NCBI GenBank assembly: GCA_014925825.1
Contig: JACGCK010000019.1
Location: 455,141-519,140 of the forward strand
DNA: 64,000 bases
Direction: 5' to 3'
From: Pholiota molesta
Taxonomy: Eukaryota > Basidiomycota > Agaricomycetes > Agaricales > Strophariaceae
How positions within the stretch are numbered: position 1 is the first letter of the stretch; every line of letters starts with the position of its first letter. Shown piece by piece: positions 21,465 to 27,057 of this stretch. Both the position numbers and the translations under genes were made by a program. The notes under the pieces are model-generated. The model was given only the letters and a program-made list of their open reading frames with translations. It did not search any database and was not told the DNA's origin.

Positions 21465-23735
21465 TTATCCCAGAGGCACACTCTTGACGACTTTGGTGAT
21501 ACCGGAGCGTTCGCCATCGTACCGGCCTCCTGCCGCTGAAAGACCGCCTTTGTAAACAGCTTTTTGGGATGCAATCTTCTTCTTTGCCTTTTCGAACTTT
21601 TGTCTCTTCTTGACACGTGGATTGCGTACGGCCTTTGGACGATGAGGTGTAAGACCTTTGTTGGTCAAGATAGCGCGTGTAAGAGAGCGAGGTCCGGCCG
21701 CTTCGCCTTCTTCGAGTGGGACGCTAGAGAGAGGTTAAAATCTGAAAAATAAACCAAAAAGAACATGACTATACCGAGCTCGTCCAGATGCAGCCTCGTA
21801 TTCTTCTTTCTTCCTCATTTTCGTCTCCTTTGATTTATTTTTCACCAGTTCGTAGTAATCATCGGGACTTTCTGCACCTTCATCGTCTTCATCACCCCTC
21901 GATCGTTTCTGTCCAGCCCGAGGTTCGGGCTCTTCATCGTCCAAAGGCGCCCCGACTTGGTTCTGCGCTCTGATGGCAGCTTCTTTCACGAGTCGTGCTT
22001 CCTTGGCACTCTTGCGTTCTCGATAGGGTATATCGTCGTCGCCACCAGCAGCTTGATTCCTTGCTCCTTGTCGGCGGGCGGTGGCGCTGTCGATCTTGGA
22101 AGTGTGGAAGCGCAAAGATTTCTTCCTCGCCGTCTTGTCAGCGGCATCCACCGAGTGAAGAGCCGTTGCTTCACCATAAGCATCAACAAGGTCGTTATCG
22201 GCTTCTTGGCGATGTGATGAAGATTTGGATTTCGAAGATACGAATTCGGGTTCAACCAAGTCAAAGACCGGGGTGACCATTTTAGGTCCTTCGTCCTTCT
22301 CCCTCTGAGTCTTTCGCTTCTTCTTGGGCGGTAAACGAGGTGTAGAACCAGCGAGGTCAATCGATTCCTTGGCGTCATCCAAGAGATCGTTGAGCTCATC
22401 AGAGTCCAACCCGTCTTCATGATCAACGCTCCAGACATTCTCGCCATCGGCCATGATTTCGTCGAAGGTCATGGACTCTTCATCCTCCTCATAGTCGTCT
22501 TCATCTTCGTCTTCGGAATCAGATGCCGCGAAGTTGAGGTCCTCCAAAGTTTGTAGAGCTTGTTTAAGAGTAAGGAGACGCTGCATGATAGGATGCGATT
22601 GAAGAAGAGCAGGACGTTGAGCATATTTTGCACTAGATCTTAGATGGAGGTAAAAGGCAAGGACGGTGCTATAGGAAAGTAGGGCCTCTATACTTGAAAT
22701 TAGGAACTGTTTATGGTATGTGCAAAATATATTACTTACGATAATGCATATGAATCATTCCAAGGCTGAGGGCATCCCGGTCCTGAGATTCCAAGCTATT
22801 CAGGTAGAAATCGAATTAACATTCGGCTCGGCAGAGTTCTCTTTCATAACGTGTACTCACTATGCCATTTTTTGTTTTGTTTTCTGAAGGTTCTGAACGG
22901 TATCTTCCCAGTCACGCGCCAGTGCCAAAGCTTCTGGACTTGTCTTCTCCAGGTGCCGCAAAAGAGCTTTTTTATCCGTCGTAGGGGGAGGTAGGACAGA
23001 AGGTACGGGATCCTCAACATCACTGTCCAAAAAGTAAGTGGAATGAATATTTCAAAGCGATGAGGACGTACACAGTATCAACTTTTTCGTCTGGCTCAAA
23101 CTCCGGATTGTCATTCAAGCCAAAGTCTTCGTCGGCCATCTCCTGGCGCATCTTGGTCTGCAGTCGCTTTGATTCTTGCTCCTCAAGTTCATTGCCCTCT
23201 TCATCGTCTGATTCCAGCTCGTTGGCGTTGGAAGAATAATACGCCCCTCGTCCTTTGCCCCAGCTCTCCTCTTCTTCCTCTTCTTCCTCCTCTTCATCGG
23301 AATCCGCTTTCTTTCCCTTGGCCTTCTTACCCTCCTTCTGCTTCTTTTTCTTGGGAGCTGGTGCCTTTTCCTCAGGGATATCGTTTTCTTCGTCATCGTC
23401 GTCATATTCTGCATAGTCCTGTCCCTCTTCATCGTCTTCGGAATTATCTTCTACACCCTTTAACGCAAAGACTTCGTCCTCATCGCCATCGTCGTCCGCT
23501 CCTCCGGCATAGTCTCCTTCCAGCAGAATTTTGTCCCGGTTATGATGGACTGTCAAAAGTGTTCATTAGCTGATTTGTCTTGTATGATGAAAGGGCAGCA
23601 GGACGTACATTGGTCTTCCTCGTCCATTGGGATATCTTCGATAGTATTCCATTTTTTCATTTTCCCGTCAGACCTCTTGAGAGGTTTTGGGGTCTTCCCA
23701 TCCTTTCTTCCCTTTGTTGCGCGCCTTCTGACCAT
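21465..23735 (-). CDS. SAS10: SAS10/UTP3, small-subunit processome protein
   Basis: U3 snoRNP/SSU-processome component acting in nucleolar 18S rRNA maturation. It starts MVRRRATKGRKDGKTPKPLK, followed by long acidic tracts typical of the family (DDDGDEDEVFALKGVEDNSE, EEEEEEEEEESWGKGRGAYY) with YYSSNA and FGLNDNPEFEPDEKVD. The Sas10/Utp3/C1D domain follows (LRHLEKTSPEALALARDWED; YAQRPALLQSHPIMQRLLTL). A middle acidic and lysine-rich part has DIPYRERKSAKEARLVKEAA, and the conserved Sas10 C-terminal domain reads PRSLTRAILTNKGLTPHRPK ... NPRVKKRQKFEKAKKKIASQ ... GGRYDGERSGI. The protein ends VKSVPLG. There are several short introns, all in frame where checked. It is the second SSU factor in the window, after FCF2. 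Confidence 0.93.
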
Positions 23736-24112
23736 CGTAGCGATTCCAGGCGCCAATTCTTGGCTGTAGTAACTGTTAAGACTAGCTTGTATTCGACAAA
23801 AGTTTAGAAATGTTATCACGTGATATCGATTTCTTCCGGACCGCTACGCCGCAGAAACCAGACCCACTGGCGCCCTGCCTCCTCAGAAACCCTCAGAGTG
23901 CCCAGTGGACTAGCAGTGGACTGTCCACGTTGGATAATAACCTAAGGGCCGCTTGTGACGAGCGGCAACACCTGCTACCGTCTCTTCTTCCGTATGCACA
24001 AGCATTCCATGTAGTATCTAATGTGCTGAAATGTCATCAGAATTTCAAGGAATACTGCGCGTTACTTATTATCATTCATATCTCCTTCTATGTCTGAGCC
24101 CAGAATACATAT
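23736..24112. promoter_or_regulatory. SAS10: SAS10 upstream region
   Basis: Spacer between the SAS10 start and the LTR element insertion. It holds a perfect 12-bp palindrome (23814-23825). The retrotransposon sits about 380 bp upstream of the start codon and could influence expression. No other gene seen. Confidence 0.5.
23814..23825. promoter_or_regulatory. Palindromic E-box TATCACGTGATA
   Basis: A perfect 12-bp palindrome centred on CACGTG, about 80 bp upstream of the SAS10 start. RTCACGTG is the classic Cbf1-type bHLH site in fungi, where such factors act on ribosome biogenesis and respiratory genes. Binding here is an inference. Confidence 0.5.
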
Positions 24113-24117
24113 AATTT

Positions 24118-24323
24118 TGTTGGATTGATGAATTCAAGCGCATCACCTGCGTGATCACTTTACATTTCATAACCATGCATTCACATTATTGTTTTATATT
24201 TCATGTGATTCTCTACGTAGTTGTTGATGTATTTAAGTACTGATTATGATGAATGGGACCTCGCGCGTTTGCGAGGGTCCCTTTTCCACCCGCCTAAACG
24301 TTCGAGAACCGTTTAAATCAACA
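24118..24323 (+). repeat. Left LTR (206 bp)
   Basis: Identical to the right LTR by eye. It contains a short hairpin (24255-24281, GGGACC-TCGC arms with a one-base bulge, 6-nt loop) that may shape the RNA end or assist termination. Confidence 0.92.
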
Positions 24324-24503
24324 CAAACGCGCATTATACCCTCTGCGCAGCTCTCGTGCCATTCCGAGCGACATCTTTGCTTTCTCTCATTACGCAAACT
24401 CGGTCTTATTTTTAGGTTGCAGTACCTAGCGAAATAAACTGCAGAAGAACCCTACGAGACACTTTTTATTCCACTATCCTTGCTATTCAATCCCCCTCTC
24501 GAG

Positions 24504-25363
24504 ATGACGACGTCTGAATCTACTGTTCGCTTCGAACGCCTCAACAACACCAACTATGCCGAGTGGTCTCTTCGCATGGAAGCTGTTCTCGTGCGGGCAG
24601 GCTTGTGGGAAGTGGTTCAGCCAACTGTCGACGTTTTCACTGCGGACGGAAAGGAAAGGACGCATCGACGATTGCGACGGAATTCGAAGCCGCGCTGAAG
24701 GCGCGCAAGAAGACGAAGATGAATGAAGCACGAGCCGAGATCATTCTGCGCCTCGAGGATGGCCAATTATCTCATTGCTTGCGATCAGACGACCCGCGCG
24801 CTATTTGGCTAATTTTAGAAAGCGTTCATCGAGCCGCCGGATTTGCGACAAGCCTGGCGCTGCGCCGCAAGTTTCTCACGCTGAAGAAGACCTCCGAGAC
24901 GATGCAAGCGTGGATCGGACAGATTCAAGCACTCGCTTTTCGACTGGAGCAAGCCGGGATAACTGTCAGCGACCAGGACAAGATCCTTGCTTTGACTATG
25001 GGACTCCCTCCAAGCTATGATGCTGTCATCATTAATTTTGACTCTACTCCCACCGACCAACTTACTCTCGCCCATGTGATTTCGCGCTTGCTCAATGAGG
25101 AAGTGCGCCAGCTTTCCGGAAAACCGAACTCCGAAAATTCCGAAGGAGCCCAAGACGAGGCGATGGCTGTTACCCAGCGCGGAAATAAGCGCGGGCTCGT
25201 GCGTCAAACATCTGAAATTGTTTGCTTCTTTTGCGACAAGAAGGGACATTACAAGTCGGACTGTCCAGAGAGATTAGCTTGGGAGAAGACGAAGAGGAAG
25301 AATGCCGAGACCGCTGCAGCTGTTTCCACATCCGACGATGAAGATTCCGATTTGGCTTTTTGA
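24504..25363 (+). pseudogene. Copia-type Gag (one-base frame break)
   Basis: Structural nucleocapsid protein of the LTR element. The N-terminal part reads VRFERLNNTNYAEWSLRMEA, the DUF4219-like start of Copia Gag. The UBN2-like body has a helical region with SETMQAWIGQIQALAFRLEQ, LALTMGLPPSYDAVIINFDS and HVISRLLNEEVRQL. The C-terminus carries a CCHC zinc knuckle, CFFCDKKGHYKSDC, and an acidic end. The first about 50 codons are in one frame and the rest in another; the break lies in GGAAAGGAAAGGACG near 24651-24662. A single missing base there would explain it. Since the LTRs are identical, either the break arose at or after insertion, the element moves without its own Gag, or the base was lost in assembly. 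A programmed -1 shift is possible but I see no classic slippery heptamer. Confidence 0.85.
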
Positions 25364-25451
25364 AGGACTTTGATAAGATTGCGGGGGTGCCGCCGGTATG
25401 AAGTTCTCTTTTATTTTAGATATTCCTTTCATTTCTTGTGGTGTTGCGCTT

Positions 25452-25460
25452 GCGGGGGTG
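25452..25460 (+). other. Polypurine tract of the LTR element
   Basis: GCGGGGGTG immediately before the right LTR, in the position where plus-strand DNA synthesis is primed. The same GCGGGGGTG also occurs about 70 bp earlier (25381). Confidence 0.5.
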
Positions 25461-25666
25461 TGTTGGATTGATGAATTCAAGCGCATCACCTGCGTGATCA
25501 CTTTACATTTCATAACCATGCATTCACATTATTGTTTTATATTTCATGTGATTCTCTACGTAGTTGTTGATGTATTTAAGTACTGATTATGATGAATGGG
25601 ACCTCGCGCGTTTGCGAGGGTCCCTTTTCCACCCGCCTAAACGTTCGAGAACCGTTTAAATCAACA
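25461..25666 (+). repeat. Right LTR (206 bp)
   Basis: Identical copy of 24118-24323, followed by the AATTT duplication. It carries the same hairpin at 25598-25624. Confidence 0.92.
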
Positions 25667-25671
25667 AATTT

Positions 25672-27057
25672 TACATCAATAAAAAGCACTACGATGATCT
25701 GCACCACCTTACGTCAAAATCAGCCCCGGCGTGTCTTCACATTGAGAGATAACTTACGAGGAGGAAGACGGAACATGACCTATTCGAAAGCAATTTACGT
25801 TGGCAAGCAGGATGCAAATGATGGAGATAAACGGGACGGCAAAGCAACGGCAAAGCATCGTCCGAATAAGAGACATTGAGCGCTAAGTTATTGATGGAGA
25901 AAGGCATGATGATGTGGGGGAGACGGTTGGAAGATGGCGAAACCGCAAAATTATCGCTTTTTGAACCAAGCAGAAAATCGGAGAGAACAATAATAACGTT
26001 GCAAAGACAATAAGAAATGGCATTAGAATACGACGGCCCGAAAACAGTCCGGGCTCCGGACCCGAAAAGGAAAAAATGATCACGTGTGTCATTGATGGGA
26101 AAAACTGACCTCCCTAAAACCTTCTACCTAACGGTAGCAGGAATTGTGTTTTGCGTCTGAGAGAAGTTAAGCCCCTAGTATTAAGAACTCAACGTAGCCT
26201 CTACTTTCAAATTAATTCGTTACGTCCAAAGGTCGAAGGGATACAGGGCATATGACTTTTTAGAGAAAGCAAATTGGAGAAATCATCACGGGTACTTGCG
26301 CATCCAACGAGCACCACTTAGTCATTCCGAAAATTGACTCGAAAATAAAGGTGCCGTGTGACAGTGATTACAATGAAAAAAGCCACCTTGATAGAATGAC
26401 TTCCATTAGGCTTGTAAACATAGATGATATTAGCCCTTCTGGAAGGTTATTAGAGCCGGGGCAAGATGAATCGGTAAGCAATACCAACCGCTGACAATTA
26501 CATAGCGACGCCTGGAAAAAGCGAAGAGAACTTGAGAGAGACGTGGGAGAGACAGAATGGTTCTTTCAACATGCGAAGGTTTCGGGGCTGATGAAAGCAA
26601 GATAGACCTGGATACAGTTTTCATTTCCGTCGGCGCGATGAAGAAACAAAAATATCAAGGTAGGCATCCTCCGGCCGTACTTCTACGTGGCTACCACGAG
26701 TGAGAATCCACTGATTGGTAGTATGAAGTTAAATACATCGCTCGTGGCCGAGATTGTCCTGTGAGATGATGACGATGTTGACTGTGGAATGGTGGAGAAT
26801 GAGTGGTAATGGGTGTGGGACCGCCCGGCGTTTTGCGCCTGAACATAGGATAAAATGAAGCGGTGGGCGCTAGCCGACGCAACTGTCATGATTGGAAGGA
26901 CAGATACACACAAGAGTAGGGTATCTGGCTTGCCATCGGAGGATTAGAACACCGTTATGACATCAACACGAAGAGATGAACTACTATACCGAATTGGTGC
27001 AATTTATTTCGCCAGCCAGCGTAAATTGAAAATCGCTCCGATGGACTTCGCGTACGC
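25672..27057. other. Intergenic, no gene seen
   Basis: About 1.4 kb between the retrotransposon and the DUF2462 gene's 3' end. No joinable exons or RNA gene recognised. A GTCCGG...CCGGAC hairpin (about 26047-26061) and an isolated TCACGTG (26081) are visible. Confidence 0.5.

What the first reader, a model, noticed from the sequence alone, without database searches (positions are those of the whole stretch)
24118..25666. Very young GAG-only LTR retrotransposon in a basidiomycete
Complete element: identical 206-bp LTRs, exact 5-bp AATTT duplication, one Gag gene with a CCHC knuckle, no pol. Such TR-GAG elements were defined in plants; a fungal family with its own Gag but no enzymes would be a useful model of retrotransposon parasitism. 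Identical LTRs say it moved recently, so an active partner Copia element should exist in the same genome.
Basis: partly seen in the sequence, partly recalled or inferred. Interest (0 to 1): 0.75.

Follow-up and report, generated by a model that had tools for sequence, protein, structure and literature searches.

The report
Self-primed, Gag-only fungal LTR retrotransposon
A short mobile element in a mushroom-type fungus encodes only its own shell protein, appears to start copying itself by folding its own RNA, and must borrow its enzymes from other elements; it seems to belong to a long-lived group of such Gag-only elements.

Summary
The element is real: 24118-25666, two identical 206-bp LTRs, AATTT duplication, one Copia-type Gag region with a CCHC knuckle, no pol. 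Two uninterrupted paralogous target sites exist. It is one of six paired copies (family A), none with pol, so it is not a one-off deletion. The window's own Gag is frameshifted; three other copies are open, with dN/dS 0.08-0.10. The genome holds two more Gag-only families (B, C). Database relatives of the A and B Gags are mostly stand-alone ~260-300 aa proteins, the named ones from mushroom-forming fungi; a search limited to longer proteins found no close gag-pol relative. New here: A, B and the gag-less D lack the primer site seen at all 17 other Copia gag loci examined. Instead the first 9-11 nt after the LTR exactly complement a segment of the same LTR, ending 52-55 nt before the LTR end, in 12 of 13 elements; compensatory changes keep the match. 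This is the Tf1-type self-priming arrangement. Best reading: an old lineage of capsid-encoding, self-primed, enzyme-less elements moved in trans by an unidentified Copia helper. The predicted partner sharing LTR, primer site and Gag was not found. New variant of a known kind (TR-GAG).

The parts
24113..24117 (.). target-site duplication AATTT, left copy
   Evidence: single AATTT at empty sites C211 and C318
24118..24323 (+). 5' LTR, 206 bp, TG...CA
24230..24237 (+). TATA-like TATTTAAG about 30 nt upstream of the predicted transcript start / self-primer
   Evidence: sequence; similar spacing in C607 (LTR printed); start site inferred
24255..24281 (+). LTR hairpin GGGACCTCGCGCGTTTGCGAGGGTCCC, kept in 5 of 6 copies (with a loop change in C607), replaced by poly(A) in C625
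24263..24271 (+). proposed self-primer GCGCGTTTG (second copy in 3' LTR at 25606-25614)
   Evidence: exact complement of the 9 nt after the LTR; helix present in the fold of the short leader
24324..24332 (+). proposed self-priming primer-binding site CAAACGCGC, directly after the LTR
24504..24698 (+). 5' piece of gag (64 aa, DUF4219), ends early because of the frameshift
24656..25363 (+). remainder of gag in another frame (Retrotran_gag_2, CCHC, acidic tail ending in AF before the stop)
25220..25270 (+). CCHC zinc knuckle CFFCDKKGHYKSDC
25450..25460 (+). polypurine-type tract TTGCGGGGGTG directly before the 3' LTR
25461..25666 (+). 3' LTR, identical to the 5' LTR
25667..25671 (.). target-site duplication AATTT, right copy

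Best explanation
This is a non-autonomous Copia-type LTR retrotransposon of the Gag-only (TR-GAG) kind, from an apparently old and still recently mobile lineage in mushroom-forming fungi. The LTR promoter makes a ~1.4-kb RNA that encodes only a Copia-type capsid/nucleocapsid protein. Gag is maintained by selection and presumably packages its own RNA. Reverse transcription is primed not by a tRNA but by the RNA's own 5' end: the first ~9-12 nt of the transcript, inside the LTR, pair with the complementary site directly after the LTR (Tf1-type). Protease, reverse transcriptase/RNase H and integrase come in trans from a Copia helper, whose LTR start and polypurine tract look alike but whose primer site and Gag differ. 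Shown: element, family, no pol in any copy, purifying selection on Gag, conserved LTR-PBS complementarity with compensatory changes, recent insertion. Inferred: transcript start, actual self-priming, particle assembly, trans-supply of enzymes, and which helper.
For: Six paired copies, all without pol. Gag dN/dS 0.077-0.097 in A (3 pairs, dS up to 1.0) and 0.09-0.17 in B (3 pairs). Complement run of 9-11 nt starting exactly at the first base after the LTR in 12 of 13 A/B/D elements; 3-5 nt in 17 of 17 other Copia gag loci and 4 in C. Controls: 0 of 645 internal windows reach it in 11 of the 12 (4 of 645 in C124), and 0-7 of 2000 shuffled LTRs. Compensatory changes: A to C607 (PBS position 4, A-U to U-A) and B to D (position 1, U-A to C-G). 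The primer-PBS helix is in the minimum-energy fold of 10 of 10 short leaders. The primer ends 52-55 nt before the LTR end although LTRs are 144-256 bp. Gag profile matches the Drosophila Copia VLP protein along nearly its whole length (E 3.3e-30); model pLDDT 82, best fold match the Copia capsid (E 7e-9). The 120 listed A-Gag relatives are 184-324 aa; among 550-1750-aa proteins none of 2306 candidates scored, while the same padded design returned 33 relatives for B. A possible helper exists: the C555 Copia, frame 1523 aa, LTR pair 99-100%.
Against: No RNA or cDNA data. The A PBS also has a 9-nt match to tRNA-Arg(UCG), in the D stem/anticodon stem. The short leaders were cut at the primer, which favours the helix; of two longer leaders, C101 folds differently and only C607 keeps it. 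C625 lacks the primer hairpin in both LTRs yet was inserted. The window's own Gag is broken. No helper could be named, and 13 of 16 weak A-PBS matches were not examined. Three D places are one duplicated insertion, so the distinct primer/PBS sets number four, not 13. can only exclude close gag-pol relatives, because the search needs shared five-residue words.
Confidence: 0.75

Rival explanations
1. It is a simple internal deletion of a present-day autonomous Copia element of this genome, passively mobilised; Gag is a relic.
For: Copia-type LTR start, polypurine tract and Gag; gag-pol Copia elements are present.
Against: No full-length element with this LTR found; six pol-less copies; Gag under purifying selection; other Copia Gags 24-29% identical; different primer site from the 17 other Copia gag loci examined.
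Confidence: 0.05
2. Reverse transcription is primed by a tRNA or tRNA fragment (for example tRNA-Arg(UCG)); the LTR-PBS complementarity is incidental.
For: 9-nt match of the A PBS to tRNA-Arg(UCG) nucleotides 21-29. The tRNA set is incomplete: 28 sequences taken of 63 listed places, and the search scored 63 of 2110 candidates.
Against: The match ends inside the anticodon stem, not at a tRNA 3' end or anticodon loop. A 9-nt match by chance is possible in this set: the unrelated iMet-type PBS gave one against the antisense strand of tRNA-Ile. C607 PBS matches tRNAs by only 6 nt at its start but its own LTR by 10; B and D match tRNAs by 5 nt there but their LTRs by 9-11. Compensatory changes.
Confidence: 0.08
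3. The true partner is an autonomous, self-primed Copia element with a related Gag that is extinct here, missing from this assembly, unexamined, or present in other species, so the Gag-only state is repeatedly re-derived from it.
For: Self-priming is predicted for plant TAR-lineage Copia, which are autonomous (PMC6317226, passages; autonomy recalled). The assembly is in 625 contigs; genome searches score only the best candidates; 13 of 16 weak A-PBS matches and 7 weak B/D-PBS matches were not examined. No gag-pol Gag from another species was in the tree.
Against: No element with pol was found by LTR or at the PBS matches examined; the long-protein search found none with a closely related Gag. 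The A and B+C Gag clades are well supported and hold only stand-alone proteins, though this is partly by construction, since the searches that supplied the rows were length-limited.
Confidence: 0.2
4. The Gag acts mainly as an interfering capsid protein, like yeast Ty1 p22, limiting rather than serving Copia elements.
For: Weak fold matches (E 0.04-0.3, not significant) include Ty1 CA-CTD and the p22 restriction factor.
Against: Whole Gag with knuckle and acidic tail is kept, not a CA-CTD fragment; LTRs, PBS and polypurine tract are kept and copies are young, so selection is acting on a mobile unit.
Confidence: 0.07

Closest known systems
TR-GAG elements of plants (Chaparro et al. 2015; paper not held, definition recalled; seen only as a citation in papers)
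   Same: Short LTR element, two LTRs, PBS and polypurine tract, single Gag ORF, no pol
   Different: Fungal; Gag without a close gag-pol relative found; self-complementary primer site differing from the resident Copia elements; broadly distributed stand-alone Gag
Gag-only Copia families of the brown alga Ectocarpus (PMC12477816, passages)
   Same: Single ORF with homology to Copia gag
   Different: The passages say nothing of self-priming or of a separate Gag clade; different kingdom
Tf1/sushi self-primed Gypsy elements and plant TAR-lineage Copia (Houba, Osr-1) (PMC6317226, PMC5445492, passages)
   Same: PBS complementary to the element's own RNA instead of a tRNA
   Different: Those are gag-pol elements (recalled); here the self-primed element has no polymerase of its own
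Fungal GalEa Copia with a conserved hairpin site instead of a PBS (PMC5445492, passages)
   Same: Fungal Copia lacking a tRNA PBS
   Different: Ascomycete gag-pol elements; their authors found no complementary repeat for the hairpin site, whereas here an exact complement exists
Drosophila Copia VLP protein (PDB 8vvw, 8s41)
   Same: Gag of similar length; best profile and fold match
   Different: Encoded by an autonomous element; overall superposition moderate (TM 0.41/0.57, rmsd 7.8)
BARE-2 / other gag-defective elements (recalled)
   Same: Non-autonomous, mobilised in trans
   Different: Opposite loss: those lack Gag, this one lacks Pol

Membership tests
TR-GAG (definition recalled) | Two LTRs with target-site duplication | tested here: met
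TR-GAG (definition recalled) | Only a gag ORF, no pol, in every copy | tested here: met
   6 of 6 A copies without pol; gag frame itself open in 3 of 6
TR-GAG (definition recalled) | PBS and polypurine tract next to the LTRs | tested here: met
   Polypurine tract present; the PBS is self-complementary rather than clearly tRNA-type
TR-GAG (definition recalled) | Non-autonomous, mobilised in trans | not testable with these tools
   inferred from absence of pol plus recent insertions
Ty1/copia superfamily | Copia-type Gag | tested here: met
   PF14223; Copia VLP protein E 3.3e-30
Ty1/copia superfamily | Copia pol order (integrase before RT) | not testable with these tools
   no pol present; placement rests on Gag and LTR/polypurine-tract likeness only
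Tf1-type self-priming | PBS directly after LTR complementary to a segment of the element's own LTR | tested here: met
   compensatory changes; not met in copy C625
Tf1-type self-priming | The complementary segment is the first ~11 nt of the transcript and is cleaved by RNase H (recalled) | not testable with these tools
   only a TATA-like box ~30 nt upstream supports the start site
Half-tRNA-iMet-primed Copia (label recalled; no iMet gene among the 28 tRNAs taken) | GGTTATGGGC directly after the LTR | tested here: not met
   absent in A, B, D; present in C and in 17 of 17 other Copia gag loci examined, of 26 such gag hits

The most novel reading that the evidence does not exclude
Gag-only elements are not recurrent deletion debris but an ancient, separately evolving class of 'capsid-encoding satellites' of Copia elements in mushroom-forming fungi. 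They keep their own capsid under purifying selection, with a Gag ending in a conserved acidic-aromatic tail at the gag/protease junction. They carry their own RNA-based primer, so they depend on the helper only for enzymes, much as satellite viruses encode a coat but borrow a polymerase.
Probability: 0.4. Interest if true: 0.85.

Novelty: new variant of a known kind. Interest (0 to 1): 0.72.

Why it matters
Gag-only retrotransposons are usually viewed as decay products. Here one genome holds three such families. Two (A, B) share a self-priming arrangement not seen at the other Copia gag loci examined, and their Gags are under strong purifying selection and have many stand-alone relatives in other fungi. 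That makes two open questions directly testable: why an enzyme-less element must keep its own capsid gene, and whether a Copia reverse transcriptase can extend an RNA self-primer. It also suggests a signature for gene annotators: CCHC-type ~280-aa fungal proteins with an acidic tail ending in F or W may be Gag-only elements rather than host genes.

Tried and rejected
Simple deletion derivative: rejected. A partner sharing the PBS: (B/D pattern, up to 2 mismatches) gave 15 matches, 7 of them family copies, against 11 in the reversed-pattern control; one of the other 8 was examined (L073: only a leader resemblance). One search (A pattern, up to 3) gave 22 matches, 6 family copies, against 3 in the control; 3 of the other 16 were examined (L074, L075: no LTR pair around the match, no Gag), some of the rest repeat the same letters, none of those was pursued. 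Polypurine-pattern hits at C311 and C2 showed no LTR pair or pol-sized frame within ~3 kb; C246 and C467 were not opened. The 5-kb D-LTR pairs at C596 and C106 looked like autonomous partners, but share flanks with C610 and show no pol-sized frame: one duplicated insertion with nested DNA. IMG/VR scans and the prokaryote-genome scan gave no relative, so self-priming could not be tested in a second species. tRNA primer: see rivals. One origin of all Gag-only Gags is not claimed: the split from gag-pol Gags is weak (85/66, long branches) and one 264-aa stand-alone protein (P0153, long branch) fell among the gag-pol rows. Literature: listings seen (12 of 12; 20 of 238; 20 of 45; 15 of 15; 3 of 3; 20 of 34; 15 of 1,125; 20 of 70) showed no report of TR-GAG in fungi; most subscription papers are not held and the TR-GAG paper itself was not available. 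One search was for the Copia capsid comparison; no paper from it was read.

Full report
OBSERVATION. The element occupies 24118-25666. LTRs 24118-24323 and 25461-25666 are identical over 206 bp; AATTT lies on both sides. Joined flanks align end to end with C211:21647-21962 (91%) and C318:14613-14925 (90%), where CATATAATTTTACATC carries a single AATTT. The target is therefore a dispersed repeat with two paralogous empty sites. Pfam finds DUF4219 in the first Gag piece and Retrotran_gag_2 plus a zinc knuckle in the second. The two pieces are in different frames: this copy is frameshifted in gag.

FAMILY A. The LTR found 12 places in the 65.6-Mb, 625-contig genome, forming six pairs. The inner sequence is present in all six, with no pol; C124 carries a 1.3-kb insert inside gag. 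Target-site duplications are AATTT, GTCTC, TGATA, CTAAA, AGGCA and TTTTT, read from the flanks. LTR pair differences are 0/206 (window), 2/206 (C124), 0/214 (C42), 0/237 (C46) and 0/256 (C607); C625 is 96.6% over 149 bp. Gag is open in C42 (286 aa), C46 (276) and C607 (290), broken in the window copy, C124 and C625. One solo LTR (C179) was found with the C607 LTR.

FAMILIES B, C, D. The Gag search gave 40 matched stretches. Second-tier hits (33-36% identical) are other Gag-only elements. B: complete elements at C444, C115, C79 and C23 plus a copy at C25 with only the 3' LTR found; LTR 144 bp, Gag 272 aa open in three, TSDs CGGGA, ACTGC, CTAGG, CGTAT. C: one copy at C333, LTR 128 bp, Gag 264 aa, TSD CTTTG. 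D is gag-less (LTR 153 bp, TSD CATAT at C610); its places at C610, C596 and C106 share flanks and are one insertion in duplicated DNA. D-like solo LTRs at C72 (TSD AAGCA) and C29 (TSD GATAT) show that the kind moved more than once. Further partial LTR matches were not opened.

SELF-PRIMING. At the 17 other Copia gag loci examined (of 26 such hits; pol domains checked by Pfam at five of them) GGTTATGGGC stands where the PBS is expected. The label half tRNA-iMet is recalled, and no iMet gene was among the tRNAs taken. Family C has the same site directly after its LTR. A, B and D do not. I measured the longest exact complement between the first bases after the LTR and the LTR itself. A: 9 nt in four copies, 10 in C607, 4 in C625. 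B: 9, 11, 9, 11. D: 10 in all three. All 12 long runs start at the first base after the LTR. The 17 loci give 3-5 nt and C gives 4. For the 17 loci the 300 nt upstream of the PBS stood in for the LTR. Controls: 0 of 645 inner windows as good for 11 of the 12 (4 of 645 for C124), and 0-7 of 2000 LTR shuffles. Between the other A copies and C607, PBS position 4 changed A to T with the LTR partner T to A; between B and D, position 1 changed T to C with the partner A to G. In two B copies one further pair is a G-U wobble. The helix is in 10 of 10 minimum-energy folds of leaders cut from primer to PBS (shuffles as good: 1-4 of 200 for A, 0 of 200 for B and D); that cut favours it. Of two longer leaders, C607 keeps it and C101 does not. 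In A a TATA-like box lies ~30 nt upstream of the primer, where the transcript start would be expected. tRNA alternative: of 28 tRNA sequences taken (63 places listed) the longest match at the PBS start is 9 nt for A (tRNA-Arg UCG, nucleotides 21-29, not a plausible primer end), 6 for C607, 5 for B and 5 for D.

GAG. dN/dS is 0.077, 0.097, 0.091 among three A Gags and 0.092, 0.171, 0.173 among three B Gags. The A-Gag search gave 260 proteins, 120 listed, 184-324 aa; candidates were limited to 0.55-1.75 times the query length, so gag-pol could not appear. A lengthened query admitting only 550-1750 aa gave 2306 candidates and no hit at E<=0.001; it can exclude only close relatives, because candidates must share five-residue words. 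The same design for B, admitting 264-840 aa, gave 33 hits: 32 of 264-353 aa and one partial 735-aa Mycena polygramma protein (31% coverage), so the design works. Of 153 proteins collected, 144 have the CCHC motif and 125 of these end in F or W. In five other Copia loci of the genome (L032, L034, L035, L037, L038) DSDSDIAF lies after the knuckle, with variants in L036, L039 and L040, but there the frame goes on (into pol domains in the three tested, L032, L037, L040). A's stop lies directly after DSDLAF. A tree of 61 Gags groups A with its relatives (28 rows, 100/100) and B with C (15 rows, 100/96); the split of all Gag-only from gag-pol Gags is weak (85/66), one stand-alone protein falls among the gag-pol rows, and all 13 gag-pol rows come from this genome. 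A 41-row profile matches the Copia VLP protein (8vvw, E 3.3e-30, positions 6-269 of 280). The AlphaFold model (pLDDT 82.2, pTM 0.62) best matches Copia capsids (E 7e-9 and 2e-5, TM 0.41/0.57 for the best, rmsd 7.8).

HELPER. No element sharing LTR, PBS and a close Gag was found. One Copia family has LTR matches in pairs at C555, C123, C422, C55, C216 and C268; at C555 the LTR pair is 99-100% identical to the query taken from it and the frame is 1523 aa, at C422 the frame is 1536 aa. It has pol domains (L032, L037, L040), a polypurine tract one mismatch from the A pattern and LTRs starting TGTTGGA like A. It is the best candidate helper, by inference only.

LITERATURE. TR-GAG papers found were on plants (listing). 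Ectocarpus Gag-only Copia families: PMC12477816 (passages). Self-priming in plant TAR Copia: PMC6317226 (passages). Ascomycete GalEa without PBS: PMC5445492 (passages). The fungal TE papers PMC3411680 and PMC4905642 (passages) mention no Gag-only elements in the passages seen. PMC6696364: only the citation of the TR-GAG paper was seen.

VERDICT. Observation right, except that this copy's Gag is broken; interpretation right in kind, not borne out about the partner; a new variant (self-primed, clade-forming) of a known kind.

Noticed in passing
L013 (C625) 5' and 3' LTR: Both LTRs of the C625 copy have the hairpin and U5 part replaced by a run of A, so the primer segment is gone; 40 of 68 inner changes against C42 are C>T or G>A, 29 of them CpG-type. 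Possibly an aberrant strand transfer onto a poly(A) tail followed by methylation decay.
   Followed up: partly
L009 (C124), inside gag: A 1.3-kb insert with repeated CGAGTA-like motifs interrupts gag.
   Followed up: partly
L054, L071, L072 (C610, C596, C106): A gag-less self-primed LTR element (D) with internal repeats, carried in three duplicated host stretches, two with several kb of additional DNA.
   Followed up: partly
window 23968-24117 and 25672-25821: The insertion flanks belong to a dispersed repeat (other copies at C211, C318, C1 and partial ones).
   Followed up: partly
L032, L035, L036, L037, L039, L040: Copia elements with a long acidic stretch after the knuckle, between gag and the later pol domains.
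   Followed up: no
window 23020-23819, minus strand: Acid-rich open frames a few hundred bp from the insertion; Pfam finds nothing at E 0.001; they resemble by eye a Sas10/Utp3-like protein (recalled).
   Followed up: no
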